DNA of 64,000 bases. Source: Cryobacterium sp. PAMC25264 (GTDB lineage: Bacteria > Actinomycetota > Actinomycetes > Actinomycetales > Microbacteriaceae). Made by a program: the position numbers and the translations under genes. This document shows positions 15,397 through 53,372 of the stretch, piece after piece (position 1 is the first letter of the stretch; each line of letters begins with the position of its first letter). The notes beneath the pieces were generated by a model. It worked only from the letters and a program-made list of their open reading frames with translations, ran no database searches and was not told the origin of the DNA. The stretch spans positions 3,782,001 to 3,846,000 of the forward strand of contig NZ_CP080383.1 of NCBI RefSeq assembly GCF_019443325.1. The letters are read 5' to 3'.

Positions 15397-15459
15397 CCGC
15401 GAACTGTGAGCAAAGCCCCGAAAACGGGCCCGTTCCGGTGCTTAGCTCACAGTTCGCGG
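15397..15459. repeat. Palindrome family A, copy 1 (ccsB/menC)
   Basis: The arms CCGCGAACTGTGAG and CTCACAGTTCGCGG are perfectly complementary, with GCAAAGCCCCGAAAACGGG and its partly complementary partner between them. The stop codon of convergent menC (TGA) and the codons for Val-Arg-Glu-Leu lie in the right arm. The structure can form a long hairpin on either strand, so bidirectional termination is likely. Other copies are at 29388, 36012, 37089 and 53310. Confidence 0.93.
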
Positions 15460-16439
15460 ACGTCGGCGAGGAGGGCGTGCACTCGGGTGATCCGGGCGAG
15501 CCACCAGTCGCGGCGCTCGGCGCTCGCGGCGTAGGTGTCCAGCAGGTCCGCATCCGGCACCACGCGTCGAACCGGGATGCTGCCATCGACCGGCAGCAGC
15601 GGGTCGTGGGTGACATCGGCGGCCAACAACGACGCCGTGGCGAGGCCGCAGTCGTAGTCCAGCTCGGGTAACCCCCCGGCCAGGAACGCACCCATGGAGA
15701 TGCCCACCGAGGTGTCGAGGGCGCTGGAGACGATGAGGGGCAGGCCGGTCTCGGCCTGAATGGCCAGCACCGCACGGATGCCGCCGAGCGGTTGCACCTT
15801 CACCACGAGCAGGTCCGCGGCGCCAGAGCGTGACACCAGGAGCGGGTCGGCCTGCTTGCGCACACTCTCGTCGGCCGCGATCGGCAGATCGAGGTAGTCG
15901 GTGCGGCGGCGGATCTCGGCGAGTTCATCGATCGACGCGCAGGGCTGCTCCACGTACTCGAGGTCGAACTCGGCCAAAGCGTGAATGGCGTGTTCGGCTT
16001 CGTCGAGGTTCCACAGGCCGTTCGCGTCCACACGGATGCGTCCCTCCGGGCCGAGTACCCGGCGCACAGCGCGGACGCGCTCCACGTCTTCGGCGAGGGT
16101 CTGGCCGGGATCGGCGACCTTCACCTTGGCGGTGCGGCAGCCGGGGAAGCGGGCCAATAGGGCGGGGACGGCGTCGGCGTCGATGGCCGGCACCGTCGCG
16201 TTGACGGGCACCCGGTCGCGGAGGAGCGCCGGGGTCTCCTGCCACCCGAACTCCAGTGCGGCCCGCAACCAGGCGGCGGCCTCCTCGTCGTCGTATTCCA
16301 CGAAGGGGGAGAACTCGCACCAGCCGGCCGGTCCCTCGATCAGCACGGCTTCCCGGCTGGTGAGGCCGCGAAAACGGGTGACAAGGGGGAGGTCGACCAC
16401 GCGGGCGGTGGCGAGCACATCGTGCAGTGAGGGGAGCAT
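15447..16439 (-). CDS. menC: o-Succinylbenzoate synthase
   Basis: A 330-residue enolase-superfamily enzyme. The catalytic Lys region is KVKVADPGQ (KxK-type), with metal ligands in RIRVDANGLWNLDEA, YVEQPC and PIAADESVR, and LLVVKVQPLGG supplying the second Lys. It dehydrates SHCHC to o-succinylbenzoate in menaquinone synthesis. The next MK genes (menB, menE, menA) lie about 2.3 kb away on the other strand. The last residues VREL and the stop codon are encoded by the arm of the palindrome at 15397-15459, so the C-terminus has been altered or extended by that element. Confidence 0.95.
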   Translation of the reverse strand: MLPSLHDVLATARVVDLPLVTRFRGLTSREAVLIEGPAGWCEFSPFVEYDDEEAAAWLRAALEFGWQETPALLRDRVPVNATVPAIDADAVPALLARFPGCRTAKVKVADPGQTLAEDVERVRAVRRVLGPEGRIRVDANGLWNLDEAEHAIHALAEFDLEYVEQPCASIDELAEIRRRTDYLDLPIAADESVRKQADPLLVSRSGAADLLVVKVQPLGGIRAVLAIQAETGLPLIVSSALDTSVGISMGAFLAGGLPELDYDCGLATASLLAADVTHDPLLPVDGSIPVRRVVPDADLLDTYAASAERRDWWLARITRVHALLADVREL

Positions 16440-16481
16440 GGCTCTAGTGTGCCAGCATCCGCTTGAGCGGTCTGGACCGGC

Positions 16482-16745
16482 TCATTCGGTGGAATCGGCG
16501 ATGAAGGTCTGCTCATCTGTCAGGATGACGTCCGGCGCATTGGGCTGCACATCCACGATCGCGATCGCGGTGCCTGCAGAAATGAGCAGGTAGGCATCCT
16601 GATAGCGCCCGGCCCCGCTGTTGACGCGGAGCCAACTGGGCACCCCGCTGGTCACGGCCGCGGTGATCTCGGCGCGCAGCGACTCGAGGGTGCGATCGCC
16701 GAGGGTGTACGGTTTGCCGCCGTAGACGATGTCGATGCGACTCAC
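16482..16745 (-). CDS. Small protein of unknown function, 87 residues
   Basis: The product starts MSRIDIVYGGKPYTLGDRTL and continues LESLRAEITAAVTSGVPSWL, then a beta-rich second half with AYLLISAGTAIAIVDVQ. It has no signal peptide or TM segment. Its ATG overlaps the stop of the upstream DUF7882-type gene by 4 bp, so the two are co-translated and probably act together. I do not recognise a named family. Confidence 0.75.
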   Translation of the reverse strand: MSRIDIVYGGKPYTLGDRTLESLRAEITAAVTSGVPSWLRVNSGAGRYQDAYLLISAGTAIAIVDVQPNAPDVILTDEQTFIADSTE

Positions 16746-17074
16746 GAGTCATCCTTCACTACCGACGTGGATCCGAGTCGGTGCGGTTCGGGCACGATCT
16801 GCAGGCCGCCGGACGAGTTCGCGGTCAACATCAGGGCTTCGATCCAGTCACGGTTCAGGCTCGGCGAACGACCCCCAAAGTACTTGTAGGCCAGTGGAAT
16901 GCTCGGATGCATCCAGATGGTGCTCCGGCCGTCACCACCCTGGGGGTCATCACGCCACGTGAAATAGAAGGCCTCACCCCGGCGCAGTTTCGCGCCGATC
17001 ACAACCTGGAGATGGGCGAGGACCCGATCATCGAAGTCCGCCGTGAGGCTCGAATCGTACGTCAGCTTGCCCAT
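16742..17074 (-). CDS. DUF7882-type small protein (often labelled ATP-dependent DNA ligase in Microbacteriaceae)
   Basis: The 110-residue product MGKLTYDSSLTADFDDRVLA continues with HLQVVIGAKLRRGEAFYFTW, then RSTIWMHPSIPLAYKYFGGR and NRDWIEALMLTANSSGGLQI. I associate this set of motifs with a very common small protein of Microbacteriaceae. The 'DNA ligase' label used for some homologues has no support here: there is no nucleotidyltransferase KxDG motif and the protein is too short. The function is unknown. It is coupled to the 87-residue gene and follows the sigma factor gene by 51 bp on the same strand. Confidence 0.8.
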   Translation of the reverse strand: MGKLTYDSSLTADFDDRVLAHLQVVIGAKLRRGEAFYFTWRDDPQGGDGRSTIWMHPSIPLAYKYFGGRSPSLNRDWIEALMLTANSSGGLQIVPEPHRLGSTSVVKDDS

Positions 17075-17125
17075 TGCACCACTCCGTTATTTGGGGTTGC
17101 TGACACGGTACGCCGGTTTCTGCTT

Positions 17126-18205
17126 CTAGTCCCTCAGATACCTCTCAAGTCGTGGCACCTTTAGGAGGGCCAAAGCGCGCTTCTCGATCTGACGCACACG
17201 CTCCCTGGTCACCCCCTGGATGACCGCTATCTGGTCGAGGGTGCGCGGTTCCTCCCCGGTGAGCCCGAAGCGGGCCGTGAGGATGGAACGCTCCCTGTCC
17301 GGAAGAGCATCGAGGTAGAAGGTGATGTCGGCCGCTCGCAGAGTGATCGTGGCGCATTCGTCAGGCTGTGGCAGGTCGTCGTCGATGATCAGCTCGGCGA
17401 TGTCGCCGATGCCGTCACCGACGGGGGCGTGCAGCGAGATCGGCTCGTTGTCGTACTGCAACAGCCGCGAGACGTCCCGCACCGCGATCTGGGACAGCTC
17501 GGCGATCTCTCTGAGGGTGGGTTCCCGGTCGAGGGTGCTGGTGAGGTCCCGGCGGATGCGCTTGATCTTGTTGAGCTTTTCGGCGGTGTGCACCGGAATG
17601 CGGATCATGCGCGACTTGTCGGCCATGCCGCGGTGGATGGCTTGACGGATCCACCACGTGGCATAGGTGGAGAACTTGAAACCGGTCATGAAGTCGTACT
17701 TCTCGACGGCACGGACCAGGCCGATGTTGCCGTCCTGCACGAGGTCCATGATCGGGACCCCGCGGCCGGAATAGTGCTTGGCGATGCTCACCACCAGGCG
17801 CAGATTGGCCTCGATGAAGTGGTTCTTCGCACGCCTGCCCTCGAAGACCAGGCAGGTGAGCTCCCGCTTGAACTCGGCGGACAGGTTCACCCCGTCGGCC
17901 GCGGCGCGGGACATCTTCTCCTCGGCGAACAGGCCGACCTCGATCTTGCGGGCCAAATCCACCTCGTCCTCGGCCGAGAGCAGGGGGCCCTTGCCGATGC
18001 GGCGCAGGTAGTCGCCGAACGCATCCGTCGACGCCCGGCTGTACCGGGAGGTGGCGGAGGCGCTGGCGGCGGCCGACGGGGTGTAGCCGGTGCTGGGTTC
18101 GGCGGCCGGCCGACGGGTGGGCGCTGACTGGCGGGTGGGCGCCGCAGCGGTGGCTGCGGTCCGGGCGATTGTGGACGTAGCGGGTGTATGGACGATGGTC
18201 GTCAT
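17126..18205 (-). CDS. RNA polymerase sigma factor, sigma-70 group 2 (SigB/HrdB-like)
   Basis: A 359-residue protein with an Ala/Thr/Pro-rich N-terminal 60 residues and region 1.2 DAFGDYLRRIGKGPLLS (61-77). Region 2 follows (about 125-200) with FIEANLRLVVSIAKHY, DLVQDGNIGLVRAVEKYD and STYATWWIRQAI; then region 3; then region 4 (about 295-350) with ARFGLTGEEPRTLDQIA and GVTRERVRQIEKRAL. It lacks the long acidic region of a primary sigma factor, so it is a group 2, SigB-type factor. The ATG at 18205 has GGGAGG upstream and overlaps the stop of a small upstream gene (ATGA). Confidence 0.93.
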   Translation of the reverse strand: MTTIVHTPATSTIARTAATAAAPTRQSAPTRRPAAEPSTGYTPSAAASASATSRYSRASTDAFGDYLRRIGKGPLLSAEDEVDLARKIEVGLFAEEKMSRAAADGVNLSAEFKRELTCLVFEGRRAKNHFIEANLRLVVSIAKHYSGRGVPIMDLVQDGNIGLVRAVEKYDFMTGFKFSTYATWWIRQAIHRGMADKSRMIRIPVHTAEKLNKIKRIRRDLTSTLDREPTLREIAELSQIAVRDVSRLLQYDNEPISLHAPVGDGIGDIAELIIDDDLPQPDECATITLRAADITFYLDALPDRERSILTARFGLTGEEPRTLDQIAVIQGVTRERVRQIEKRALALLKVPRLERYLRD

Positions 18206-18570
18206 GCGAGTACCTCCCGGGTCAGAAGACTTGCGGTGGCGCGGTCGAAGGAGGAGGAGTAGGCGCGTTCGCGGGGTCGGCCGAGATTGGTGACCTCGAA
18301 GGCGCTGCCCACGATCTGGATGAAACCGAGAAGGGCCGAAGGGTCGTCCTGGGTGATCAGATGATCGGCGACGCGCCATTCGGTGGGTGACAGTGGAGTG
18401 ATGTCCACATCGGTGTAGTCGGGCTCTGGCGCGGTACGGGCGCTCGGCAGGGACTGGGGCGTCTGATGCTGTGTCGGGTGAGGCAGGACAGGGGGCGTGG
18501 TTTCGGCGCTGATGACGGGTGCGTGTTCGGGTAACGCGGTGTCGGGTGCCGAGGGGCTGTTATCAAACAT
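18202..18570 (-). CDS. Small protein translationally coupled to the sigma factor gene, unknown function
   Basis: From the ATG at 18570 (GGAGG upstream) the frame encodes 122 residues. A Pro/Thr/Ser-rich, probably disordered, N-terminal half starts MFDNSPSAPDTALPEH. A compact second half contains PLSPTEWRVADHLITQDD, LLGFIQIVGSAFEVTNLG and FDRATASLLTREVLA. The stop TGA overlaps the sigma factor ATG. No HTH, TM or Cys motif is seen. Being first in the sigma operon, it may be a regulator or partner of the sigma factor; that is inference from position only. Confidence 0.8.
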   Translation of the reverse strand: MFDNSPSAPDTALPEHAPVISAETTPPVLPHPTQHQTPQSLPSARTAPEPDYTDVDITPLSPTEWRVADHLITQDDPSALLGFIQIVGSAFEVTNLGRPRERAYSSSFDRATASLLTREVLA

Positions 18571-18723
18571 GACCACCTCCGGGTCGTTCGGGTGAGATAA
18601 GTACACAGCCGGGGATTCAAGCCGTTCAAGGGGTTGACGTGATGCCCTCGGAGGAGGTACACCTGAAAAGCCCTCAACTCTCTCAGCCCACTCGCCATCG
18701 ACCCCGCCGCGTAGGCTGATCCC

Positions 18724-19635
18724 ATGCCCGAACTCGTTTCTGAGATCTTCGATCCTTCCCAGTGGCGTTCGGTGGACGGCTTCGCCTCCATCACCGACAT
18801 CACCTACCACCACGACATCACCGGACGCATCGCCCGGGTGGCCTTCAACCGGCCCGAGGTTCGGAATGCTTTCAGGCCGCAAACCGTTGACGAGCTCTAC
18901 GCCGCGTTGGAGGACGCCCGCACCAACCCGCAGATCGGCGTGGTGCTGCTCACCGGCAACGGCCCGAGCCCGCGCGATGGCGGCTGGGCGTTCTGCTCGG
19001 GCGGTGACCAGCGCATCCGTGGACGGGACGGCTATAAGTATGCGGAGGGTGAGACCGCCACGGGCATCGACAAGGCCAGGGGTGGCCGGCTGCACATTCT
19101 CGAGGTGCAGCGCCTGATCCGTTTCATGCCCAAGGTCGTCATCGCGGTCATCCCGGGCTGGGCGGCCGGTGGCGGGCACTCGCTGCACGTGGTCTGCGAC
19201 CTCAGCATCGCCAGCGCCGAGCACGGCAAGTTCAAACAGACGGATGCCGACGTCGGCTCCTTCGACGGCGGCTACGGCAGCGCCTACTTCGCCCGCCAGG
19301 TGGGCCAGAAGGCCGCGCGCGAGGTCTTCTTCCTCGCCCGCGAGTACTCCGCCCAGCGCGCGCTCGAGATGGGGGCGATCAACGCCGTGGTGCCGCACGC
19401 CGAGCTGGAGAACGAGGCACTGGACTGGGCGCGCACCATTCTGACCAAGTCGCCCACGGCCATCCGCATGCTCAAGTTCGCCTTCAACGCCGTCGACGAC
19501 GGCATGGTCGGCCAGCAGGTCTTCGCCGGGGAGGCCACCCGGCTCGCCTACGGCACCGACGAGGCCGTCGAGGGGCGGGACTCGTTCCTTCAGAAGCGCG
19601 AACCGGACTGGTCGCCGTACCCCTGGCAGTTTTAG
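18724..19635 (+). CDS. menB: 1,4-Dihydroxy-2-naphthoyl-CoA synthase
   Basis: A 303-residue crotonase-fold enzyme. It has the MenB-specific CSGGDQRIRG oxyanion segment, GWAAGGGHSLHVVCDLSIAS (second oxyanion/active-site loop), KQTDADVGSFDGGYGSAYFA with the catalytic Asp and Tyr region, and the C-terminal EGRDSFLQKREPDWSPYPW tail characteristic of MenB. It cyclises o-succinylbenzoyl-CoA in menaquinone synthesis. It is followed 21 bp later by menE and then menA on the same strand, forming a menBEA operon divergent from the sigma factor gene. Confidence 0.97.
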   Translation: MPELVSEIFDPSQWRSVDGFASITDITYHHDITGRIARVAFNRPEVRNAFRPQTVDELYAALEDARTNPQIGVVLLTGNGPSPRDGGWAFCSGGDQRIRGRDGYKYAEGETATGIDKARGGRLHILEVQRLIRFMPKVVIAVIPGWAAGGGHSLHVVCDLSIASAEHGKFKQTDADVGSFDGGYGSAYFARQVGQKAAREVFFLAREYSAQRALEMGAINAVVPHAELENEALDWARTILTKSPTAIRMLKFAFNAVDDGMVGQQVFAGEATRLAYGTDEAVEGRDSFLQKREPDWSPYPWQF

Positions 19636-19656
19636 CGGTGTCGCGGTGATCGCATC

Positions 19657-20862: not shown

Positions 20863-20895
20863 GTCGCTCGCAGCCGGGGCCACTAACATGAGTGC

Positions 20896-21921: not shown

Positions 21922-22001
21922 TCGTCGCCAAGCACCCGTCGCGCAGCACCCGTCGCGCACCCGGGCCGCACGCACGCTGCGGGCCTCTGCCTCTAGCCGA
22001 G

Positions 22002-22073
22002 GCCAACTGTGCCCCGTGCGGACTTATGCACCCGGTGCGCCGGGGCCTTTTGTCCGCACGGGGGCCAGTTGGC
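22002..22073. repeat. Palindrome family B, intact copy (menA/putA)
   Basis: GCCAACTGTGCCCCGTGCGG on the left is complementary, with few mismatches, to CCGCACGGGGGCCAGTTGGC on the right. The inner part has GACTTATGCACCCGGTG and CCTTTTGTC. It sits between convergent menA and the putA-like gene. A second copy, split by the IS3 element, has its halves at about 29789-29820 and 31383-31414. Confidence 0.85.
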
Positions 22074-22104
22074 GGATGCCGCCGCCGCAGGACACGGCGC
22101 AGGG

Positions 22105-27509: not shown

Positions 27510-29379
27510 GGCGGCAGCTCAGACCGGATCGACACCCGAGGCGCCCGCCACCCTGCCGGCTGAGGCCGCACCGCGTTTGGCGCCTGTTGCGCCCAGCGGT
27601 AGCCCGGCGACCGACTTCAGCGTGGCCCTGCTGGCCGAGTTCGTGCGCCTGGGCGTGAGTGATCTCGTGCTCAGCCCCGGATCGCGCTCGCAGGCCCTGG
27701 CTCTGGCCGCCGCAGAGTTCGAGCGGCTCGGCCTGCTGCGTCTGCACGTGCGGATCGACGAGCGCGGCGCCGGCTTCCTGGCGCTCGGGCTCGCGATCGA
27801 GAGCGGACGCCCGGCGCTCGTGGTCTGCACCTCCGGCACCGCCGTGGCCAACCTGCACCCCGCCGTGCTCGAGGCGCACCACTCAATGGTGCCGATGATC
27901 CTGCTCACGGCGGACCGGCCCGGCGAGCTCCGCGGCATCCGATCGAATCAGACCACCGTGCAGCCCGGCATCTTCGCGGGCGCCGTGCGGCTGAGCGACG
28001 ACGTGGACGCCCCCGACGGCAGCGCCGGCGAGGGCGAGATCGCCGTGCGCCTGGCCGGCCGGGCGTACAGGGTGTCCCTCGGCACCGACACGCTCAACCC
28101 CGGAGCGGTGCACCTGAACCTGGCGTTCCGGGAGCCGTTGTCGGCCGCGGTCGAGCTCGCGGTTGCCGGTCCGGAGGCTGACCTCGCCGGGGCCCTCGAC
28201 GGCGCCGGCCTCGCCGATACCACTGAGGCAACCGCCTCCGACGACCTCGCCGATTATGCCGACCTCGTCGCCCACGCTGACGAGGCTGGGGGTGCCGGCG
28301 CAGTCATCGCCGCATCCGTGCTGCTCGAAGCCGGGCCCCGCACCGTCGTGGTAGCCGGCGCCGGTGCCGGGCCGGCGGCGGAAGAACTCGCCCGCACGGC
28401 CGGTTGGCCGCTGCTGGCCGAGGTGTCCAGCGGCTCACGGTTCGGGCCCAACCTCGTGGTGGCCTACCGGGAGCTGATCCGCGACGCCGATTTCGGCGGC
28501 CAGGTGCAACGCGTGATCGTCTTCGGCCACCCCACCCTGAGTCGCGAGGTGCCGACGCTTGTGCAGCGAGACGGGGTGGAGACCGTCGTCGTGGCTCCGG
28601 CCGGAGCCGAGCGGTACAACCCGGGCCACCGGGTGTCCAGCTTCGCCCGCACCGCCACGGCCTCGGCCGCTGCCGTCACCGCGGCGGGAACCCGCGACGC
28701 ACGCGCCTGGACGGGCCGCTGGGTGATGACGAGCCGGGCCATCCTGGCCGCCGACACGCAGCTGGATACGCCCGCCTTCGGAACGCACGGCATGACCAAG
28801 GCCGAGTTCGCGGCCATGAAGGCCCCGGTGACCCGGGCTATGCTCGCCGACGCGGTGTGGCGGGCCTCCTGGCCGCACGACCGGCTGGTGCTGGGCGCGT
28901 CCCGGCTGATCCGCGAGCTGGACACCCGGGTCACGGGCAAGAAGATCCCCGTGCACGCCAACCGCGGCCTGGCCGGCATCGACGGCACCGTCGCCACGGC
29001 CGTGGGTATCGCGCTGGCCAGCCAGGCGGGTGAGCATCCGCTCTCGAGCGGCACGACCCGGCTGCTGGTGGGCGATGTGACCCTGTTGCACGACGCCGGG
29101 TCGCTGCTCATCGCGCCCGGGGAGACGCGCCCGCGGGTGCAGGTGGTCGTGGGCAACGACGGCGGCGGCACCATCTTCGACGGCCTCGAGGTGGCCGCAA
29201 CGGCCAACCCCACGGCCGTGGACCGGGTGCTCTTCACCCCGCAGCAGGTGGACCTTCAGTCCCTGGCGGCCGCCTACGGCTGGTCCTACGTGCGCGCCGC
29301 CACCCGCAGTGCCCTTGAGACCGCCCTCACGGCGCCGGTCGCGGGCCCCACCCTCGTCGAGGTCCCCCTCCAGCGCTAG
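27502..29379 (+). CDS. menD: 2-Succinyl-5-enolpyruvyl-6-hydroxy-3-cyclohexene-1-carboxylate synthase
   Basis: A ThDP-dependent enzyme of 625 residues from the ATG at 27502; a GTG at 27475 in the same frame is an alternative start. N-terminal motifs are [34 protein letters not shown] and [20 protein letters not shown]. The ThDP-binding part is near [19 protein letters not shown] and [13 protein letters not shown], then [12 protein letters not shown]. It adds the succinic semialdehyde unit from 2-oxoglutarate to isochorismate. It overlaps the PLDc_N gene by 8 bp. A palindrome follows 8 bp after the stop. Confidence 0.95.
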
Positions 29380-29387: not shown

Positions 29388-29450
29388 CCGCGAGCTGTGA
29401 GAAAAGCCCCAGAATTCGGGAAATTTCGGGGCTTTACTCACAGTTCGCGG
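29388..29450. repeat. Palindrome family A, copy 2 (3' of menD)
   Basis: CCGCGAGCTGTGAG and CTCACAGTTCGCGG form the outer arms, with one mismatch. The inner part AAAAGCCCC pairs with GGGGCTTT, and GAATTC lies near the centre. It begins 8 bp after the menD stop and directly abuts the allophanate hydrolase remnant. Confidence 0.92.
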
Positions 29451-34591: not shown

Positions 34592-35989
34592 ATGACCAAG
34601 TTGCGATTGGCCATAGTCGGTGCGGGCCCCGCCGGCATCTACGCCGCAGATATCCTCCTGAAGGCCGAGCGGAATTTCGATGTCTCCATCGACCTGTTCG
34701 ACCACCTTCCGGCCCCGTATGGGCTCGTGCGCTACGGCGTCGCGCCCGACCACCCCCGCATCAAGGGCATCATCACGGCGCTCCGGGACGTGCTCGACCG
34801 CGGCGATATCCGCCTGTTCGGCAACGTCCGCTACGGCACCGATATCACCCTCGACGACCTCAAGAAGCACTACAACGCGGTCATCTTCGCCACCGGGGCC
34901 GTGCACGACGCCGACCTGGCCATCCCGGGCATCGAGCTCGAGGGCTCCTACGGTGCCGCCCGGTTCGTGAGCTGGTTCGACGGCCACCCCGACGTGCCGC
35001 GCACCTGGCCGCTCGAGGCTAAGTCGGTCGCCGTGATCGGCAACGGCAACGTCGCCCTCGACGTCTCCCGCATCCTCGCCAAGCACGCCGACGACCTGCT
35101 GCCCACCGAGATCCCGGCGAACGTCTACGAGGGCCTCAAGGCGTCCCCGGTCACCGACGTGCACGTGTTCGGCCGCCGCGGCCCCACCTCGGTGAAGTTC
35201 ACCCCGCTGGAGCTGCGCGAACTCGGCGAACTCAACGACGTGGACATCATCGTGCACGACGAGGACTTCGACTACGACGATGCGGCCCGTGCGGCCGTGG
35301 CCAGCAACAAGCAGGTCTTCGTGATCGACAAAGTGCTCAACCAGTGGCGGAACCGCGAGACCGGGAGCGCCTCACGCCGGCTGCACCTGCATTTCTTCGC
35401 CCGCCCGGTGGAGGTGACCGACGACGGCAACGGCCACGTCGGCGGCTTCAAGTACGAGCGCACCGCACCGGATGGCCACGGCGGCGTGGTGGGCACCGGC
35501 GAGATCCGCGAGGTGCCGATCCAGGCCATCTACCGGGCCGTCGGCTACTACGGGTCCTCGCTTCCGGGCATCCCGTTCGACAAGAAGCGCGGCGTGATCC
35601 CCAATCGCGAGGGCCAGGTGCTCTGGAAGGGCGAGCCGGGCTTCGAGTCCAGCACCGCCAGCCAGCAGATGTACGGCGTGTACGCCACCGGCTGGATCAA
35701 GCGTGGGCCGGTGGGCCTGATCGGGCACACCAAGTCCGACGCCATGGAGACCGTGCGGCACCTGATCAACGATGTCGGCAATTGGTGGCGCCCCGAGTCG
35801 CCCTCTGAGGAGAGCATCCTCGAGCTGCTCGACGAGCGCGGCGTGGCGTACACCGACCTCGACGGCTGGCACCGCCTCGACCAGCACGAGCTCGCGCTCG
35901 GCGCCGAACAGGGTCGCGTGCGCGTCAAGGTGGTTCCCCGCCACGAGATGGTCGAGATCTCGCGGGCCCAGGTTCCCGCCGAGCTCTAG
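34592..35989 (+). CDS. Ferredoxin/adrenodoxin-type NADP reductase (FprA-like)
   Basis: A 465-residue flavoprotein. The N-terminal FAD motif is AIVGAGPAGIYAAD (about 7-20), followed by APYGLVRYGVAPDHPRIKGI. The NADPH-binding motif is VAVIGNGNVALDVSRIL (about 148-164), with VFGRRGP, and the C-terminal GWIKRGPVGLIGHTKSDA. This is the adrenodoxin reductase/FprA architecture, moving electrons from NADPH to ferredoxin-type proteins. The ATG at 34592 is 10 bp after the polyprenyl synthase stop, so it is likely in one operon with menG. Confidence 0.92.
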   Translation: MTKLRLAIVGAGPAGIYAADILLKAERNFDVSIDLFDHLPAPYGLVRYGVAPDHPRIKGIITALRDVLDRGDIRLFGNVRYGTDITLDDLKKHYNAVIFATGAVHDADLAIPGIELEGSYGAARFVSWFDGHPDVPRTWPLEAKSVAVIGNGNVALDVSRILAKHADDLLPTEIPANVYEGLKASPVTDVHVFGRRGPTSVKFTPLELRELGELNDVDIIVHDEDFDYDDAARAAVASNKQVFVIDKVLNQWRNRETGSASRRLHLHFFARPVEVTDDGNGHVGGFKYERTAPDGHGGVVGTGEIREVPIQAIYRAVGYYGSSLPGIPFDKKRGVIPNREGQVLWKGEPGFESSTASQQMYGVYATGWIKRGPVGLIGHTKSDAMETVRHLINDVGNWWRPESPSEESILELLDERGVAYTDLDGWHRLDQHELALGAEQGRVRVKVVPRHEMVEISRAQVPAEL

Positions 35990-36011: not shown

Positions 36012-36074
36012 CCGCGAACTGTGAGTTAAGCCCCAAAAAACGCGAGTTTTCGGGGCTTAGCTCACAGTTCGCGT
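36012..36074. repeat. Palindrome family A, copy 3 (3' of the FprA-like gene)
   Basis: CCGCGAACTGTGAGTTAAGC on the left pairs with GCTTAGCTCACAGTTCGCG on the right; CCCC(A)n and TTTTCGGGG are in the middle. It begins 22 bp after the stop of the reductase gene and ends about 15 bp before the alpha/beta hydrolase start. Confidence 0.93.
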
Positions 36075-36088: not shown

Positions 36089-37084
36089 ATGGTGGAACTC
36101 GTGTGGCGGGAGGACCTGCTCGGGGAGCGCTTCCAGCAGGCCACGTTGCCTCTCGGCAGCGACGGCGAGGGCGATGTGGTCGCCACCCTGGTTCGCCACC
36201 GCCCGGCGCCGACCGAACTCGTCTCACCCTTCGCGCCGGCGCACGGTATCGACGTGCTCTACGTGCACGGATGGTCGGACTACTTCTTCCAAACCGGCCT
36301 AGCCGAACACTGGCACCGGGTGGGCGCCCGTTTCTACGCCCTGGACCTGCGCAAGTACGGGCGCAGCCTGCGCGAGCACCAGACCCCTGGGTACGTGGCC
36401 GACCTGGCCACCTACGACGCCGACATCGACGCCGCCCTCACCGCGATGGGCCACGGGGAGAACTCAGAGCGGCCGTCCCGCCGCCGCCTGGTGTTGATGG
36501 GCCACTCCACCGGCGGACTCACGCTGAGCCTGTGGGCGTCCAGACACCCGGGCCGGGCCCACGCGCTCGTGCTGAACAGCCCGTGGCTGGAGTTTCAGGC
36601 CGGCGGTGTGGGTCGGGCCTTCATTGCGCCCCTTGTGCAGCTGGGCGCCCGCGTGCAGCCGCTGGGTACTCTTCCTCAAGTGGACCTGGGCTTCTACAGC
36701 CGTTCGGTCTCGGCCGAGTTCGACGGCGAATGGTCCTACGAATCGCGCTGGCGCCCGCCGCGTGGCTTCCCGCCGCCCAGGGCCTGGCTGAATGCGGTGC
36801 TCGAGGGACACGCAGCCGTGGCGGCCGGACTGGGCATCGAGGTGCCCATCCTCACCCTGCTTTCGGCGCGGTCCACGATCCTGCCGCGCTGGAGCGATCA
36901 GATGCGGCACAGCGACAGCGTCCTGGTGGTGAACGACATCGCCAGGGCCGCCGTACGGCTGGGCTCGACGGTGACGGTGGCGCGCATCGAGGGCGCCCTG
37001 CACGACGTCGTTCTCTCGGCTCCGGCTCCCCGGGCGGCGGCGTATGCGGCGCTCACCCGGTGGCTGCGCGCCTACGCCTCCTAA
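36089..37084 (+). CDS. Alpha/beta hydrolase (serine aminopeptidase/lysophospholipase type)
   Basis: A 331-residue alpha/beta hydrolase. The nucleophile elbow is MGHSTGG with Ser140; the oxyanion part is VLYVHGWSDYFFQTG; the C-terminal ALHDVVLSAP supplies the His. ALDLRKYGRSLREHQTPGY matches the Hydrolase_4/monoacylglycerol-lipase-like group. The substrate is unknown. It lies between two family A palindromes (36012 and 37089), so it is likely a separate transcript bounded by them. Confidence 0.88.
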   Translation: MVELVWREDLLGERFQQATLPLGSDGEGDVVATLVRHRPAPTELVSPFAPAHGIDVLYVHGWSDYFFQTGLAEHWHRVGARFYALDLRKYGRSLREHQTPGYVADLATYDADIDAALTAMGHGENSERPSRRRLVLMGHSTGGLTLSLWASRHPGRAHALVLNSPWLEFQAGGVGRAFIAPLVQLGARVQPLGTLPQVDLGFYSRSVSAEFDGEWSYESRWRPPRGFPPPRAWLNAVLEGHAAVAAGLGIEVPILTLLSARSTILPRWSDQMRHSDSVLVVNDIARAAVRLGSTVTVARIEGALHDVVLSAPAPRAAAYAALTRWLRAYAS

Positions 37085-37088: not shown

Positions 37089-37150
37089 CCGCGAACTGTG
37101 AGTTAAGCCCCTAAAAACGCGAGATTCTGGGCTTATCTCACAGTTCGCGA
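37089..37150. repeat. Palindrome family A, copy 4 (alpha/beta hydrolase / yajQ)
   Basis: CCGCGAACTGTGAGTTAAGC and its partner on the right (GCTTATCTCACAGTTCGCGA) form the arms. It starts 4 bp after the hydrolase stop and ends 7 bp before the stop of the convergent yajQ-like gene, a bidirectional-terminator position. It is the most diverged copy. Confidence 0.92.
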
Positions 37151-37157: not shown

Positions 37158-37646
37158 TTAGCGGAAATTGACGAACTGGAGGGCCACGTCGAGGTCCTTG
37201 CCTTTGAGGAGGGCCATTGTGGACTGCAGGTCGTCGCGGCTCTTCGAGGAAACCCGCAGCTCGTCGCCCTGGATCTGACTCTTGACACCCTTGGGTCCCT
37301 CGTCGCGGATGATCTTGTTGATCTTCTTCGCGTTCTCCTGGTCGATGCCGGCCTTCATGCTGGCCTCGATGCGGTACTCCTTGCCCGACGCGTATGGCTC
37401 GCCGGCGTCGAGGCTGCGCAGCGAGATGCCGCGCTTGATCAGCTTCGACTCGAACACCTCGAGGATCGCCTTGACGCGCTCCTCGGTGTTTGCCTTCATG
37501 AGCACCTTCTCGCCGCTCATCTCGATGGATGCGCCCACGTTCTTGAAGTCGTAGCGCTGAGCCACCTCTTTGTGAGCCTGGTTGAGCGCGTTGTCGACCT
37601 CCATGGGGTCGACCTTGCTGACGATGTCGAACGTTGAATCTGCCAT
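37158..37646 (-). CDS. YajQ-family nucleotide-binding protein
   Basis: A 162-residue protein (from the ATG at 37646; an ATG three codons upstream is also possible). It starts [20 protein letters not shown], with [26 protein letters not shown] and the C-terminal [20 protein letters not shown] and [10 protein letters not shown]. YajQ proteins bind c-di-GMP or other nucleotides and RNA in several bacteria; the function in Actinobacteria is uncertain. MADS is the usual family N-terminus. Confidence 0.93.
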
Positions 37647-38718: not shown

Positions 38719-38875
38719 TCGGGTTCCTTACCGACGTGCAAGAAGGGGTATTAGGTGATCATATCCACCGCCCGGGCGGCGGGTCGCCCACCCTGATTTC
38801 GCACTTGGGCCCTCTGGCTTGTATTCTGTCTGAGCGTCTCCGGTCACGTGGTCACATATGGTCGGGTATGCACTG

Positions 38876-38957
38876 GCGAGTTACCCAAGCGGCCAAAGGG
38901 ATCTGACTGTAAATCAGACGGCGTAGCCTTCGTGAGTTCGAATCTCGCACTCGCCAC
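38876..38957 (+). tRNA. tRNA-Tyr (anticodon GTA)
   Basis: Acceptor stem GGCGAGT (38876-38882) pairs with ACTCGCC (38950-38956), discriminator A. The anticodon stem TCTGA/TCAGA encloses loop CTGTAAA with anticodon GTA at 38910-38912. A long variable arm (class II tRNA) is present, then T-arm GAGTTCGAATCTC. The CCA end is not encoded. Confidence 0.98.
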
Positions 38958-38985
38958 AGCAAGAACTGCACAAACACAGCACAAC

Positions 38986-39013
38986 GAACGCGCCGGACCT
39001 CCGGCGCGTTCGT
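38986..39013 (+). terminator. Hairpin after tRNA-Tyr
   Basis: CGAACGCGCCGGA (38986-38998) is complementary to TCCGGCGCGTTCG (39001-39013). It lies 28 bp after the tRNA. The T-tract is absent, but the stem is very stable. Confidence 0.7.
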
Positions 39014-41470: not shown

Positions 41471-41521
41471 GCCACCGCCAGCAGCCCAGCCCGCGGCCTC
41501 TGCGCGCGGCGCTCCCACACG

Positions 41522-41766
41522 GTGGTTGAGCTTGTCGAAACCTGGTGAGCCGCCCTGGGGATGCCGCGCTGGGTCTCGACAGGCTCGACCGGCGAGAGGG
41601 GCGGCTTCAGAGGTCGGCCTGCGGGGTCTCGACGGGCTCGACCGGCGAGAGGGGCGGCTGCAGGAGGAGGCCGCCGGGGCCTCGACGGGCTCGACCGGCG
41701 AGAGGGGCGGCTGCAGGAGGAGGCCGCCGGGGCCTCGACAGGCTCGACCGACGAGAGGGGCGGCTC
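41522..41766. repeat. GTCGAG repeat array: four 53-bp tandem units plus an outlying core
   Basis: The units start at CTCGAC 41575, 41628, 41681 and 41734, so the period is exactly 53 bp. The unit reads CTCGACGGGCTCGACCGGCG followed by AGAGGGGCGGCTGCAGGAGG and AGGCCGCCGGGGC; units 2-3 differ at few positions. A single GGTTGAGCTTGTCGAAACC core lies upstream at 41523-41541. The last unit ends at the stop codon of the alarmone synthetase gene. No spacers vary as in CRISPR. Confidence 0.93.
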
Positions 41767-44391: not shown

Positions 44392-44421
44392 GACGGACAG
44401 ACTACGGCATTCCGAGCAACA

Positions 44422-44435
44422 TGCAAGCGCTTCCA
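44422..44435. promoter_or_regulatory. LacI-type operator upstream of the GH13 alpha-glucosidase gene
   Basis: TGCAAGCGCTTCCA is a CG-centred imperfect palindrome of the classic LacI-family type. It lies 31 bp before the minus-strand start and matches the site at 44517 in the same gap. Confidence 0.7.
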
Positions 44436-44516
44436 CTAATCCGCAACAGCAAATCGACCTGAGCACTGTAGATAACCACACACTGGGTTGCTAATCGAGA
44501 AAATGACAGGTATACA

Positions 44517-44530
44517 TGTAACCGCTTGCA
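44517..44530. promoter_or_regulatory. LacI-type operator upstream of the alpha-glucoside ABC transporter
   Basis: TGTAACCGCTTGCA is a CG-centred palindrome, 34 bp before the SBP start codon at 44564. With 44422 it gives each divergent gene its own operator. Confidence 0.7.
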
Positions 44531-44563
44531 CAAATGTCAATGTTGATTACGAAAGGCACACCA

Positions 44564-45796: not shown

Positions 45797-45810
45797 CAAC
45801 CGGCTCCTCC

Positions 45811-45847
45811 CGGGTGCGCCCGGCCTCTTCGGGGCCGGGCGCACCCG
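45811..45847 (+). promoter_or_regulatory. Stable intercistronic hairpin after the SBP gene
   Basis: CGGGTGCGCCCGGCC (45811-45825) pairs perfectly with GGCCGGGCGCACCCG (45833-45847) across a 7-base loop. No T-tract follows. Such a hairpin between an SBP gene and its permeases probably stabilises the upstream message or attenuates read-through, giving more SBP than permease. Confidence 0.75.
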
Positions 45848-45927
45848 AGCACCGCATCACCGCTACGCCGCACCACCCGCGGAAGCGCAGAACTCGCAGC
45901 ATCCGCACCTCACATCGAGAGCAGACA

Positions 45928-47553: not shown

Positions 47554-47554
47554 G

Positions 47555-48472: not shown

Positions 48473-48479
48473 GCGCCGG

Positions 48480-50401
48480 ATGCCGCTCCGCCCGCTGCCG
48501 GTGCTCGTCCTTCCGCACCACGACGGCTCCCCGCTCTACGTCTCGACCCCGGAGCCCGCGATAGGCGACGTCGTCACGGTGAGGCTGCGCATCCCGCTCG
48601 CCTTCGGCGCCGTGGCCCTCGTGCGCACCCGGTCCAACCCCGACCAGGAACCGCGATTCGACGATGCCCGGCTGCTCGGCTCCGCCGCCACCGGCGATGA
48701 CGGATACGCCTGGTGGGCCGCGGACCTCGTGGTGGAAAACCCCGTGCACGGCTACCGGTTCCTGATCAGCATGGCCGATGGCGGCCATTGGTGGCTGAAC
48801 GCCAGCGGGCTGCACGACATCGAAACCCTCGACTCCGAGGACTTCAAGCTCGTCGCCCACCCGGCCCCGCCGGCCTGGGCCGCCACCAGCGTGATGTACC
48901 AGATCTTCCCCGACCGGTTCGGTCGCTCCGCCGCCGCCGACACGCGCGAGGCGCCGGACTGGGCCATGCCCGCGCAGTGGGGCGACGCCGTCGACCAGCT
49001 GCCACCGGGACGTTCGCACCAGTTCTACGGCGGCGACCTCGACGGCATCACCGAGCACCTCGACCACCTCGAACGGCTCGGCGTCACCCTGCTCTACCTC
49101 ACCCCGGTTTTCCCGGGCCGCTCCAACCACCGCTACGACGCCGCTGCCTTCACCGAGGTCGATCCGCTGCTCGGCGGCGACAAAGCGCTGATCCGGCTCG
49201 TCGAGGCTGCCCATGCGCGCGGGTTCCGGGTGATCGGCGACCTCACGGCCAACCACTCCGGTGACGGTCACGAGTGGTTCCAGGCGGCCCACGGCGCCCC
49301 GGCGGCACCCGAAAGCGCCTTCTACTACTGGCTCGACGCGGAGCAGCGCGACTACATGTCCTGGCTCGGCGTGCCCGAGCTACCCAAGTTCAACTGGACC
49401 TCCCCGGAGCTCCGACGCCGGTTCATCGAGGGTGCGGATTCGGTGGTGGCGAAGTGGCTGGAACCGCCGTTCAACCTGGACGGCTGGCGCATCGACGTCG
49501 CGAACATGACCGGCCGGCTCGGCGACGAAGACCTCAACGCCGAGGTGCGCCAGGCCATCCGGCAGACCATGATCGACGTGAACCCCGACACCATCCTGCT
49601 CGGCGAATTCACCAACGACGCCGCGGCCGATTTCCAGGGCGACGCCTGGCACGGCGCGATGACCTACGCGAACTTCACCAAGCCGCTCTGGTCGTGGCTC
49701 TGCCGGCCCGACCCGGTGCCGTCGTTCTTCGGGGTGCCGCTGGGCAGCATCCCAGCGCACACCGGCGTCCAGTTCCACCGGGCGCACACCCGCTTCGCCG
49801 CCGGATTCCCCTGGCGCACCCGGCTGGCCACCATGAACGCCCTGGACACCCATGACACCGCCCGCTTCCGCACCCACGCCGACGCCGAGGCGGTGCCGGT
49901 AGCCGTGGGGCTGTCGGTGACCCTGCCGGGTATCCCGGTGGTGTTCGCCGGCGACGAGTTCGGCCTTGCCGGCATCGACGGCGAGCATTCCCGCACCCCG
50001 ATGCCGTGGTCCAGCGTGACCGACCCGGATGTGGCCGCCACCATCGACCTGTACACGGCGCTGATCGGCCTGCGCCGGCGCATGAGGCGCTGAGCACCGG
50101 CGGCCTGCGCTGGCTGCACGTGGGCGACGACGCGCTCGTCTACGTGCGCGAGAGCGCGGAGGAGACCGTGTTACTGCTCGCCACCCGGGCCGCGGCTGAC
50201 GTGACCCTGCCGGTCTGGATGGTGCCGTTCGGCGGCGGCGTCGGCATCCTGCCGGCCGAGCTGGGGCCGGCCGTCTTTTCTTCCGGTCCGGAGGGGCTGC
50301 ACCTGGCCGCCACCGGCGCATCCTTCACCGCCTGGGTGCTGCCCGGCGTCACAATCGCGGCGGATGAGCACCCTGTGTCGCAGAGAGGTCTCGCGAGGTG
50401 A
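48480..50401 (+). pseudogene. GH13 alpha-glycosidase (neopullulanase/cyclomaltodextrinase-like), frameshifted near 50078
   Basis: The first frame (48480-50093, 537 residues) has an N-terminal beta-domain (about 1-110) and a GH13 barrel with VMYQIFPDRFGRS, HQFYGGDLDGI, VIGDLTANHSG, LDGWRIDVANMTG (nucleophile), TILLGEFTND (acid) and LDTHDTARFRTH. It then stops early. The C-terminal beta-domain continues in another frame (AHEALSTGGLRWLHVGDD through LPGVTIAADEHPV) to 50401. Adding one base in CGGCG at 50076-50080 gives one frame of about 640 residues. It is either an inactivating deletion, a sequencing error or a truncated enzyme that may still fold. Confidence 0.85.
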
Positions 50402-50454
50402 TAATGTTTACCGGTTGCCAAAAGCACGGTTCAGCTTCAGAACTATGAAGTTTT

Positions 50455-50526
<72 letters not shown>

Positions 50527-50557
50527 CAGGCTTGGGAGCTAAGCTCTGAAGGCCTAA

Positions 50558-50631
50558 GGCGGGGTAGCTCAGTTGGTTAGAGCACACGGCTCATAATCGT
50601 GGTGTCGCGGGTTCAATTCCCGCTCCCGCTA
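50558..50631 (+). tRNA. tRNA-Met (anticodon CAT)
   Basis: Acceptor GGCGGGG pairs with the 3' TCCCGCT with two G-U pairs. The anticodon stem CACGG/TCGTG encloses CTCATAA with anticodon CAT at 50592-50594. The T-arm is GCGGGTTCAATTCCCGC. The first base pair is G-U rather than the mismatch typical of initiator tRNA, so an elongator is likely. Confidence 0.95.
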
Positions 50632-50636
50632 CACAC

Positions 50637-50678
50637 AAAGGCCCTTTGATCTGGTGTTTACCGGTCATGGGGCCTTTC
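50637..50678 (+). terminator. Terminator after the tRNA-Thr/tRNA-Met pair
   Basis: AAAGGCCC (50637-50644) pairs with GGGCCTTT (50670-50677), with a 25-base loop containing a second small stem, then TCTCTT. Confidence 0.7.
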
Positions 50679-50761
50679 TCTTATGGGTCAGCATCCCCGC
50701 GGCTCCGTTCTAGCTCCGAAGTTCAGGGGGCGGCACCCGCGGAACGCGAGAGACTGGTGAA

Positions 50762-53322
50762 GTGATTTCTGCGCTGTTCGACCCGGCGAGACTCGGTCGC
50801 GGGCTCTCGTTCGCCTCCGCGATCGATGATCTGAGCGCCGCGTTGGATCGGAGCCCCACCGTCGTCGTCAGCGCGCCGCCGGGCACGGGAAAGACCACGC
50901 TCGTCCCGCCGTTTCTCGCCGATCGTGTTCAGGGTCGTGTGATCGTCACTCAGCCCCGCCGGGTCGCTGCCCGCGCAGCCGCCCGGCGACTCGCGCAGTT
51001 GGACGGATCCCCGCTCGGCTCCCGCGTCGGATTCACCGTCCGCGGCGCACATCAGGTGAGTCCATCCACCCTGATCGAGTTCGTCACCGCCGGCGTGCTC
51101 CTTCGCCGACTCCTCGATGACCCTGGTCTCGACGGGATCGGCGCGGTCATCATCGACGAAGTGCACGAACGTGCCTTGGAGACGGATCTGCTGATCGGGC
51201 TGCTCGGCGAGGTCCGCGAGCTGCGTGAGGACCTCGTCCTCATCGCGATGTCCGCGACACTGGACGCCGAGAGGTTCGCGACGATTCTCGGCACGGATGC
51301 GTCGCCGGCGCCGATCGTGACCCAGGTGGCACCGGCGCATCCGCTCGAGGTGCACTGGGCGCCCTCTCCCACACCGCGACAAGATGAACGCGGGGTGACC
51401 TGGGCTTTCCTTGACCACGTCGCGAGCACCGCGGTTGCCGCGCACCGCACTCTCGTGCGCACCGATCCGGCAGCCGATGCTCTCGTCTTTGCGCCGGGTG
51501 CGCGGGAGGTCTCCGAGATCGCCGGACGCATCCGTGGTCTCGCGGCGGAGTTCGACGTCCGCGAACTGCACGGCCAGATCCCCGCCGCAGAGCAGGATGC
51601 GGTGATCGGTGGGCGGAGCCTCGGTGGTGCCGCGCGAATCATCGTCACGACGTCGCTCGCTGAATCCTCTCTGACCATCCCCGGCGTGCGCCTGGTCGTT
51701 GACACCTGCTTGTCTCGTGCTCCGCAGCGGGATGCAGTGCGCGGGATGAGCGGTCTCGTCACCGGTCCCACGCCCAAGGCCTCCGCCATTCAGCGCTCTG
51801 GGCGCGCCACCCGGCAGGGGCCGGGCGTCGTGGTCCGCTGCGTCGACGAGCGAACCTTCGCCACGGCGCCGTCGCACGCTGCCCCGAGATCCAGGTGGCC
51901 GACCTCACCGACGCAGCCCTGCTCCTCGCCTGTTGGGGCGCTCCTGGCGGGGTGGGCCTCCGACTGGTCGATCCGCTTCCCTCGGGCAGCCTGGGGGAGG
52001 CCCTCGCCGTACTGCGGGGGCTCGGCGCGATCGATGCCGATGGCCGCGCCACCGACGAAGGACGAGCACTCGCCCGCGTCCCGACGGCTCCTCGCCTCGC
52101 TCGCGCACTGCGCGCAGGGGGTGACCTGGTCGGCGGGCGCACGGCGGCCGAGGTCATCGCGCTGCTCAGCGGTGATCTCCGCGTTGCAGACGGAGACGCC
52201 CAGGCTGCGCTCACCGTGCTGCGAAACGGACGAAGCCCGGATGCCCGCCGATGGGAGCGGGAAGTCCGGCGTCTCCGGCGCTTCGCCGGGGCGAGAGACA
52301 CGGTGCGAGGAGGCGCTGATCAGACCGGACTCATTATCGCGCTCGCGTTTCCCGAGTGGATCGCTCGCCGCGTCGATCAGTCGCCGCACGGCGCAACCTT
52401 CCTTCTCGCCTCCGGCACCCGTGCCGGGATCACGGGTCCGCTCGCGAGTGCCGACTGGTTGGCGGTGGCGGACGTCACTCGCGCGGAGGGGCGAGCGGCC
52501 GCAGGAACGGGGGCAATCATCCGCTCTGCCGCCATCATCTCCGAGAACCAGGCGGAGCAGGTGGCGCCCCATCTCTGCACCGACAGGGTCGACGCTCAAT
52601 TCGTGGACGGGCGCGTCGTCGCGCGCCGTGAACGTCGGATCGGCGCGATCATCCGCTCGTCTGTACCGGTGCGCGTTCAGGCGGACGATGGCGGACGGGA
52701 TGCCGTGCGCCTCGCTGTCATAGAGCACGGACTCGGAGTGTTCACCTGGTCAGACGCCGCGGACGCTCTGCGGCGTCGCCTCGCACTGCTGCACCGTGAG
52801 CTCGGTTCGCCTTGGCCGGATGTCTCGGACACCGTTCTGCTCAGCACGCTCGATTCCTGGCTCGGCCCCGAGCTGTCAGACCTCGCCGCCGGCACTCCGG
52901 CCGCGCGCATCGACCTGGTCCCGGCGCTCCGTCGTCTCTTGCCGTGGCCAGCCGCGGTCGACCTCGATGCTCTGGTTCCCGAGCGCCTCCAGGTGCCCAG
53001 CGGCTCGCAGGTCCGACTCAGCTACCCACCCGCCGATGATTCCGCCGCCCATCCCGTCGTGGCTGTGAAACTTCAGGAATGCTTCGGATGGGGCCAGACT
53101 CCGCGAATCATCGGAGGACGAGTGCCGGTATTGTTCCATTTACTTTCCCCCGCCGGGCATCCCCTTGCCGTGACCGACGACCTCGCATCCTTCTGGGCAG
53201 GCCCGTACTCGCAGGTGCGCGCAGAGATGCGCGGCCGCTATCCCAAGCACCCCTGGCCAGAGGACCCCTGGTCCGCCACACCCACCCGGCACACCACACG
53301 CCGCGCTGCCCGCGAACCGTGA
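50762..53322 (+). pseudogene. hrpB: ATP-dependent helicase HrpB, frameshifted near 51886
   Basis: The first frame (50762 to about 51884) encodes the helicase core: APPGTGKTTL (Walker A), IIDEVHERALETD (DEVH box), IAMSATLDAERF, and SGRATRQGPGVVVRCVDE (motif VI). The rest (ratchet/HA2-like and HrpB C-terminal domain, EIQVADLTDAALLLACWG onward) is in another frame and ends REP* at 53322. One extra base in CCGAG at 51884-51888 would join them (about 853 residues, normal for HrpB). It may be true decay or a sequencing error. The last three residues and the stop lie in palindrome copy 5. Confidence 0.87.
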
Positions 53323-53372
53323 GTAAAGCACCCAAAACCGGAGGTTTTGGGTGCTTTACTCACGGTTCGCGG
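53310..53372. repeat. Palindrome family A, copy 5 (hrpB/lacI)
   Basis: CCGCGAACCGTGAGTAAAGC pairs perfectly with GCTTTACTCACGGTTCGCGG. ACCCAAAACC is in the centre on the left and GGTTTTGGGT on the right, so the whole 63 bp is nearly one perfect palindrome. The stop of hrpB (TGA 53320-53322) and the stop of the convergent lacI-type gene (53356-53358) are both inside it. Confidence 0.95.

What the first reader, a model, noticed from the sequence alone, without database searches (positions are those of the whole stretch)
15397..53372. Family A: five dispersed 62-63 bp palindromes at gene 3' ends
Copies at 15397-15459, 29388-29450, 36012-36074, 37089-37150 and 53310-53372 share outer arms close to CCGCGAACTGTGAG / CTCACAGTTCGCGG and an inner AAGCCCC/GGGGCTT pair, with a variable centre. 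All lie just downstream of a stop codon, and three (15397, 37089, 53310) lie between convergent genes. The arms are conserved and the loop is not, as expected for an element kept as a hairpin. They look like a mobile or gene-converted REP/MITE-like family used as bidirectional terminators.
Basis: partly seen in the sequence, partly recalled or inferred. Interest (0 to 1): 0.78.

Follow-up and report, generated by a model that had tools for sequence, protein, structure and literature searches.

The report
Palindrome repeats with a partner nuclease
About a hundred 63-letter DNA palindromes sit at gene ends in this Cryobacterium, and they look like one half of a two-part repeat system whose other half is a DNA-cutting type of protein whose own gene lies between two of them.

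Summary
Each copy is two 23-bp inverted half-sites 17 bp apart. The outer arms are conserved as sequence, not through pairing. No Y1 (REP-type) transposase was found in 37 genus genomes. Instead, a gene encoding an AbiEi-like module fused to a Vsr-like EDxHD (homing-endonuclease-type) nuclease lies between two copies. Its homologues lie between matched palindromes in 17 of 27 relative loci and 14 of 26 class-wide loci, against 2 of 505 control genes. Two close relatives without the gene keep one palindrome at its place, and their copies are decaying. I read it as a REPIN/RAYT-like dispersed-repeat system built on an unrelated nuclease; binding, cutting and spread are inferred. An ISL3 element uses the palindromes as landing sites (7 of 7). 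Terminator action is untested.

The parts
15397..15459 (.). 63-bp dyad element, copy 1 (23-bp half-site, 17-bp spacer, 23-bp half-site); supplies the TGA stop of the convergent minus-strand gene 15447-16439
   Evidence: site absent or replaced in four of five relatives compared, a copy present in G002
29388..29450 (.). 63-bp dyad element, copy 2, 8 bp after the stop codon of gene 27622-29379
   Evidence: copies on the shared left flank in G007, G004, G023 and, with a short spacer, G024
36012..36074 (.). 63-bp dyad element, copy 3, between the genes ending at 35989 and starting at 36089
   Evidence: orthologous copies in G004, G024, G023, G002; absent in G007
37089..37150 (.). 62-bp dyad element, copy 4, between convergent genes 36089-37084 (+) and 37158-37646 (-)
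   Evidence: orthologous copies in G004 (mutated), G024, G007, G023, G002
53310..53372 (.). 63-bp dyad element, copy 5, a perfect 30-bp inverted repeat; contains the stop codons of both flanking ORFs
   Evidence: the left flank has no match in the five relatives
36089..37084 (+). alpha/beta-hydrolase gene lying between copies 3 and 4; with its G002 orthologue the only hit among 505 control genes, and one of 10 genes in the held G000 DNA that lie singly between two copies
   Evidence: (name from a plasmid record)

Best explanation
The five palindromes are chromosomal copies of a 63-bp recognition site belonging to a two-component dispersed-repeat system that works like REPIN/RAYT but uses an unrelated enzyme. 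SHOWN: about 101 copies of a site made of two inverted 23-bp half-sites with a 17-bp spacer; strong conservation of half-site sequence and total length but not of arm-to-arm pairing; a gene between two copies, whose protein family combines an AbiEi-like module (residues 1-192) with a Vsr-like EDxHD nuclease domain (195-302); the same gene-between-two-matched-palindromes layout, with lineage-specific arms, in many Actinomycetes; in two close relatives the gene is gone, one palindrome is left in its place and the other copies have lost their fixed length. INFERRED: the protein binds the two half-sites as a dimer in double-stranded DNA and nicks or cuts within the element; repair of the break copies or rewrites palindromes, and occasionally the whole palindrome-nuclease-palindrome cassette, at other sites, which keeps arms and spacing uniform; recombination between the two bracketing copies deletes the gene and leaves a solo palindrome, after which the family decays. 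The 3'-end location reflects where insertions are tolerated, and some copies now provide stop codons and may help end transcription.
Against: No binding, cleavage or movement was observed. In G000 itself the nuclease is only one of 10 genes that lie singly between two copies, and its downstream neighbour is another; that neighbour's homologue also lies beside a palindrome in G265 and G307. The link rests on recurrence across genomes. No recent duplicates: every pair of 88 copies differs at 4 or more positions, so spread is slow or over. Arms at shared sites are no more alike than arms of unrelated copies (38.8 v 38.2 of 46), so in-place selection and conversion between copies are not separated. 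G004 and G024 may share one loss event. Model-match counts are high in G004/G024 despite the loss and low (0, 1, 3, 8) in four genomes with a 54-60% orthologue (G013, G020, G034, G010; their flanking arms, where seen, differ). Nuclease and arm divergence correlate only modestly over 31 loci (rho 0.18; 9 of 2000 permutations). 10 of 27 and 12 of 26 homologue loci lack a matched pair by the script's rule. Pfam hits are sub-threshold or marginal. The inner stem shows weak pairing excess and G000 tandem copies favour G.U over A.C (33 v 11), which a pure dsDNA site does not need.
Confidence: 0.72

Rival explanations
1. Host regulatory or architectural sites: the AbiEi-like protein is a host regulator, roadblock or nucleoid factor that uses about 100 genomic sites at gene ends; its nuclease domain is incidental or defensive, and the sites are kept because they serve the host.
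For: Long-lived positions: 18 of 27 held copies in G023, 15 of 23 in G007 and 8 of 8 in G002 share a junction, on one side at least, with a G000 copy; core arm columns conserved where loops are not; no recent copying; enrichment between convergent genes 45 of 93 v 15 of 67, p 0.0009.
Against: Patchy presence and loss or replacement in congeners, gene-specific arms in each lineage, gene bracketed by its own sites with a solo site where it is missing and invariant catalytic residues look selfish rather than housekeeping.
Confidence: 0.2
2. Intrinsic bidirectional terminators: a family of RNA hairpins selected at gene ends, with no DNA-level partner.
For: Folding energies -35 to -58 kcal/mol; 115 of 133 flanking gene 3' ends within 35 bp; inner AAAGCCCC..GGGGCTTT core; weak pairing excess in the inner stem and G.U over A.C on the transcribed strand in G000 tandem copies (84 v 46 over all pairs).
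Against: Outer arms pair no better than chance across copies, whereas Bacillus cereus terminators show compensatory changes (PMC5381666, abstract); the G.U bias is absent in relatives (29 v 39) and could be mutational; the sequence and 63-bp length are conserved beyond what pairing needs; stretches of congeners without family A show shorter ordinary hairpins at gene ends (G021, G016, G017); no T tract follows the outer stem in the window copies.
Confidence: 0.12
3. Classical REP/BIME or REPIN family driven by a RAYT (Y1 HUH) transposase.
For: Copy number, extragenic location, inverted layout, IS targeting of the repeats.
Against: PF01797 has no match in any of 37 genus genomes, while the same search rings in 5 of 14 control genomes.
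Confidence: 0.03
4. MITEs of the ISL3 element found in the same genome.
For: Seven identical ISL3 copies all lie in palindromes.
Against: The IS has its own ends (GGCTCT[TC]CTGAC) and makes 8-bp duplications inside the element at one dyad-symmetric position; a relative has the palindrome without the IS at the same place; palindrome arms are not IS ends.
Confidence: 0.01

Closest known systems
REPIN/RAYT (REP sequences with REP-associated tyrosine transposases)
   Same: Dispersed extragenic palindromes in about 100 copies, inverted arms, a gene close to its own repeats (PMC3116915, abstract), repeats used as IS targets (PMC1525189)
   Different: Partner is a Vsr-like EDxHD nuclease fused to an AbiEi-like module, not an HUH Y1 protein; fixed 63-bp dyad rather than 20-40-nt REP units (REP size recalled)
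EDxHD (Vsr-like) homing endonuclease I-Bth0305I
   Different: Fused to an AbiEi-like module; sits between its presumed sites in chromosomes and is associated with about 100 solo sites
AbiEi / Rv2827c type IV antitoxins
   Different: Extra nuclease domain; 17-bp spacing instead of 3 or 13; dispersed sites rather than one promoter; whether a toxin gene lies beside it was not profiled
IS1397, ISKpn1, ISPpu9 and other REP-targeting insertion sequences
   Same: An IS inserted specifically into dispersed palindromes (7 of 7)
   Different: Here an ISL3-family element; Tobes and Pareja 2006 name IS3, IS110, IS4, IS256 and IS5 and do not mention ISL3 (PMC1525189, abstract and passages)

Membership tests
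REP/REPIN-RAYT | Many extragenic palindromic copies in one genome | tested here: met
   94 intact + 7 IS-split copies located; none of the 94 inside a called gene
REP/REPIN-RAYT | Linked Y1 (HUH) transposase, PF01797 | tested here: not met
   0 of 37 genus genomes; 2 of 60 overall, both in other genera; 5 of 14 controls ring
REP/REPIN-RAYT | Partner gene next to its own repeats | tested here: met
   Met with a different enzyme class
REP/REPIN-RAYT | REP head tetranucleotide GTAG/GGAG (recalled) | tested here: not met
   Arm consensus CCGCGAACTGTGAGNWAAGCMCC does not begin with it
EDxHD (Vsr-like) homing endonucleases | Vsr-like catalytic fold with E, D, H, D residues | tested here: met
   (motif name recalled)
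EDxHD (Vsr-like) homing endonucleases | Cuts a specific site and spreads by break repair | not testable with these tools
   Only indirect: cassette/solo-site alternatives at one locus
AbiE type IV toxin-antitoxin | AbiEi fold and 23-bp inverted-repeat sites | tested here: met
AbiE type IV toxin-antitoxin | Adjacent AbiEii nucleotidyltransferase toxin | tested here: inconclusive
   The downstream neighbour has close homologues in all 24 genus genomes examined, many without the nuclease beside it, so it is not an obligate partner; it was not profiled
MITE | Ends shared with a resident transposon and target duplications | tested here: not met
   ISL3 ends differ; no flanking duplication seen at the five window copies or at the one precise gain/loss site; other transposons of the genome were not surveyed
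Intrinsic terminator | Stem maintained by compensatory pairing | tested here: not met
   Outer arms: no excess over dealt halves; weak excess in the inner stem only
Intrinsic terminator | Transcripts end there | not testable with these tools
   No RNA data

The most novel reading that the evidence does not exclude
A class-wide family of AbiEi-EDxHD nucleases in Actinomycetes constitutes a second, independently evolved kind of REP-type genome colonist: each nuclease lineage carries its own palindromic site, seeds tens to about a hundred solo copies at gene ends, rewrites them in concert within a species, and is lost by recombination between its two bracketing copies, leaving decaying footprints.
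Probability: 0.6. Interest if true: 0.88.

Novelty: new variant of a known kind. Interest (0 to 1): 0.83.

Why it matters
REP elements have been explained through one enzyme class, the Y1 RAYTs, which were not found here. If a Vsr-like homing-type nuclease with an AbiEi-like DNA-binding head plays that part across Actinomycetes (homologues in 88 of 148 genomes sampled), it gives a function and a target to a common 'DUF559 / endonuclease domain-containing' protein family and explains a class of unexplained palindromes at gene ends. It also gives a natural experiment, genomes with and without the gene, for how dispersed repeats are maintained. The sites, the protein and the gene-loss genomes are all defined, so each step can be tested directly.

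Tried and rejected
Y1/RAYT partner: searched and not found. MITE of the resident IS: rejected from the seven insertion structures. Any gene family repeatedly next to copies inside G000 alone: clustering 285 neighbouring proteins gave only common families and one duplicated gene; the partner emerged only from cross-genome clusters, where ABC-type and other common families and the nuclease's downstream neighbour also recurred, but not between two palindromes in several families. Rfam: only tRNAs in the window. RNA-level test: a G.U over A.C bias in G000 tandem copies was not replicated in relatives and can arise from strand-biased mutation, so I did not build on it. Uneven chromosomal spread: not significant. 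Families B and C near nuclease loci: my fuzzy patterns were too loose to interpret. PDB by sequence: nothing convincing; by fold: clear. Foldseek 'pdb' was not run. Order-wide model search mixes true relatives with ordinary hairpins, so I use it only for the multi-copy cases. A first flank script used truncated gene calls and found 11 of 23; I replaced it by match coordinates, where 3 contig-edge loci of 30 were dropped, as were 3 of 29. Papers: searches showed, in the rows listed, no report linking DUF559-type nucleases with palindromic repeats, or on such palindromes in Cryobacterium; only open-licence papers are held and lists were cut, so absence is weak evidence. Papers seen: PMC1525189 (abstract, passages), PMC2817692 (one passage), PMC3116915 (abstract, outline), PMC7319586 (abstract, passages), PMC5381666 (abstract), PMC3710099 (passages).
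Full report
WHAT IS THERE. The window is part of a single-contig 4,064,970-bp genome (G000; window = 3782001-3846000). The organism is a Cryobacterium: named Cryobacterium contigs that carry exact matches (11 stretches, all Cryobacterium) align at about 84-96% to held loci of G000 and its congeners, and the contig lengths of G007 and G023 equal those given for proteins of Cryobacterium sp. SO1 and SO2.

THE FAMILY. A covariance model of the five copies, arm patterns and a pairing script located 94 intact copies and 7 more split by an insertion sequence; the lists were capped, so this may be a few short. 88 of 94 are exactly 63 nt. Pooled over the 176 arms of these 88, the information is 37.8 bits in positions 1-23 and falls to 0.19 bit at position 24. 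The unit is therefore a 23-bp half-site (CCGCGAACTGTGAGNWAAGCMCC), a 17-bp spacer, and the half-site inverted. No two of the 88 differ by fewer than 4 positions, so there has been no recent burst.

WHERE THE COPIES LIE. By a coding-score gene caller of my own, of 94 copies 45 lie between convergent genes, 43 between tandem genes, 5 between divergent genes, 1 undetermined, none inside a called gene. Background gaps in the window and three control stretches of G000 were 15 convergent, 35 tandem and 17 divergent of 67 (convergent enrichment p 0.0009, divergent depletion p 0.0004). 115 of 133 flanking gene 3' ends are within 35 bp. In 24 of 94 copies a gene's stop codon lies inside the element, mostly the TGA of CTGTGA. 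At 15397 the relatives' protein ends ...LLAD, while in G000 it runs on into the element (read by eye from the alignment).

NOT A PAIRING-KEPT HAIRPIN. If right halves are dealt at random among the 88 copies, the outer 14 positions pair as often as they really do (1096 observed, 1099.2 expected). Arm variants at positions 7, 9, 14, 15 and 16 are independent between arms. The inner part shows a weak excess (17-23: 568 v 557.1, p 0.011; 24-29: 291 v 274.5, p 0.04). In tandem copies of G000 G.U exceeds A.C on the transcribed strand (outer arms 33 v 11), but relatives show 6 v 8 and convergent controls 11 v 17. An RNA-level role is therefore possible but not established.

LONG-LIVED SITES. Of copies held from congeners (mostly their best-scoring ones), 18 of 27 (G023), 15 of 23 (G007), 8 of 8 (G002), 4 of 5 (G004) and 3 of 4 (G024) share a junction, on one side at least, with a G000 copy. 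At such sites in G023, G007 and G002 (17, 13 and 6 pairs of 63-mers) the spacer is 0.61-0.64 identical and 15 core arm columns 0.93-0.98, while 4-fold codon sites are 0.68-0.70 identical. Arms at shared sites are, however, no more alike than arms of unrelated copies (38.8 v 38.2 of 46) and loops only slightly (10.6 v 9.5 of 17), so selection in place and conversion between copies are not separated. G023 copies carry their own arm variant (G at 7 in 93%, C at 9 in 98% of 54 arms), also at shared sites: the arms move together within a species.

THE LINK IS GENERAL. With one fixed rule (palindromes of 40-76 nt within 300 bp on both sides whose arms match at 14 or more of 18), 17 of 27 homologue loci in the relatives set qualify, against 2 of 505 control genes, both being the window's hydrolase and its G002 orthologue. 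Among 26 full class-wide loci 14 qualify (330 bp and 38-76 nt; one locus, G041, is in both sets). Fisher p 3e-23 and 8e-19. Any palindrome beside the gene: 25 of 27, 25 of 26, and 106 of 505. The arms differ from lineage to lineage. In named records Arthrobacter sp. ERGS1:01, Arthrobacter sp. StoSoilB13 (plasmid 2) and Tsukamurella tyrosinosolvens show the pair by eye, and a second StoSoilB13 replicon has only one palindrome. The Tsukamurella 64-mer occurs in 8 records at 81% identity or more.

LOSS OF THE GENE. The orthologue (54% identity or more) is found in 14 of 37 genus genomes, one of them frameshifted; model-match counts (both strands, capped at 89) are higher with it (p 2e-4). The instructive exceptions are G004 and G024, about 93-95% identical to G000, without the orthologue but with 82 and 84 model matches. 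At the syntenic locus G000, G002, G003 and G026 have neighbour - palindrome - nuclease - palindrome - neighbour; G007 and G023 have the same nuclease cassette and downstream neighbour, with a further stretch and palindrome upstream and the upstream neighbour outside the fetched piece. G004 and G024 have neighbour - one palindrome - neighbour. Nine others (G009, G013, G016, G017, G020, G021, G022, G031, G034) have neither gene nor palindrome in that gap. In stretches not chosen for their own copies, model matches in G004 and G024 are 63 nt in 4 of 15 cases, against 9 of 10 in G007, G023 and G002 (p 0.004; scores lower, p 0.0015); without matches of E above 0.001 this is 4 of 11 v 8 of 9, p 0.03 (scores p 0.0007). 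Of 13 G000 sites alignable on both sides in G004, 8 are still recognisable (6 by script, 2 by eye as decayed or half) and 5 are gone, one as a clean 63-bp difference. G005, which shows no family A match, has at the same locus a solo palindrome of its own nuclease-linked family.

A PARASITE OF THE SITES. An ISL3-family element (1436 bp) has 7 copies with identical transposase in G000, all inside a palindrome, all with an 8-bp duplication at one dyad-symmetric position next to the half-site. In the window only 7-9% of AT-rich intergenic 8-mers lie in palindromes. G004 shows the IS-free palindrome at one of the sites. Related IS copies in other genomes mostly sit in unrelated sites.

HOW IT PROBABLY WORKS. 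The simplest account is a selfish, REPIN-like system: protein binds the dyad, cuts, and break repair spreads or rewrites copies; only recognisable copies are propagated or corrected, which keeps arms and spacing; loss of the gene starts decay. A host-serving alternative, in which the protein is a regulator or roadblock and the sites are useful, remains open. Terminator activity is plausible for some copies and untested. The match of fold, half-site length, layout and loss pattern makes the protein-site link strong (about 0.9); the copying mechanism is inference (about 0.5).

Noticed in passing
window 22002-22073: A second palindrome family (about 66-72 nt, arms like GCAACTGTTGCC, core like GTGCGGACAATTGCGCC) with copies in G023, G002 and, by its arms, G005 stretches; possibly the site family of another nuclease paralogue.
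   Followed up: partly
window 3292-3329, 7817-7972, 9185-9221, 41515-41765: Dispersed and tandem TCGACAGGCTCGACC-type repeats (52-53-bp units); in G004 and G024 such repeats occupy the site of palindrome copy 1.
   Followed up: no
G000:C1 298136, 435934, 628986, 2009893, 3590601, 3861003, 3879215: Seven ISL3-family insertion sequences with identical transposase, all inserted at the same symmetric point inside family A palindromes.
   Followed up: yes
L234-L238, L042, L065 (G005): G005 has 75-nt elements of one length in two copies (ATTCGACGGAG..CTCCGTCGAAT) and a nuclease-linked CGCGAAAGCGGG family; two of its ISL3 relatives appear to sit at such elements.
   Followed up: partly
L308 (G006): G006 holds a second 63-nt palindrome with different arms (CCGCGAAACCGCAG..) near its main family.
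   Followed up: no
L196-L215 (G007, G023, G002): A 60-64-nt GC-rich palindrome family around GGCGCGCC; members occupy the site of copy 1 in G007 and G023.
   Followed up: no
L415 and Tsukamurella tyrosinosolvens plasmid records: A DUF559 gene between two 64-nt palindromes, with further copies in 8 records.
   Followed up: partly
window 7978-8009, 9255-9287, 38984-39013, 45811-45847: Ordinary-looking 30-37-nt terminator-type hairpins, several with like-sequence counterparts in relatives' stretches.
   Followed up: no
window 38875-38956, 50455-50526, 50558-50631: Three tRNA genes.
   Followed up: no
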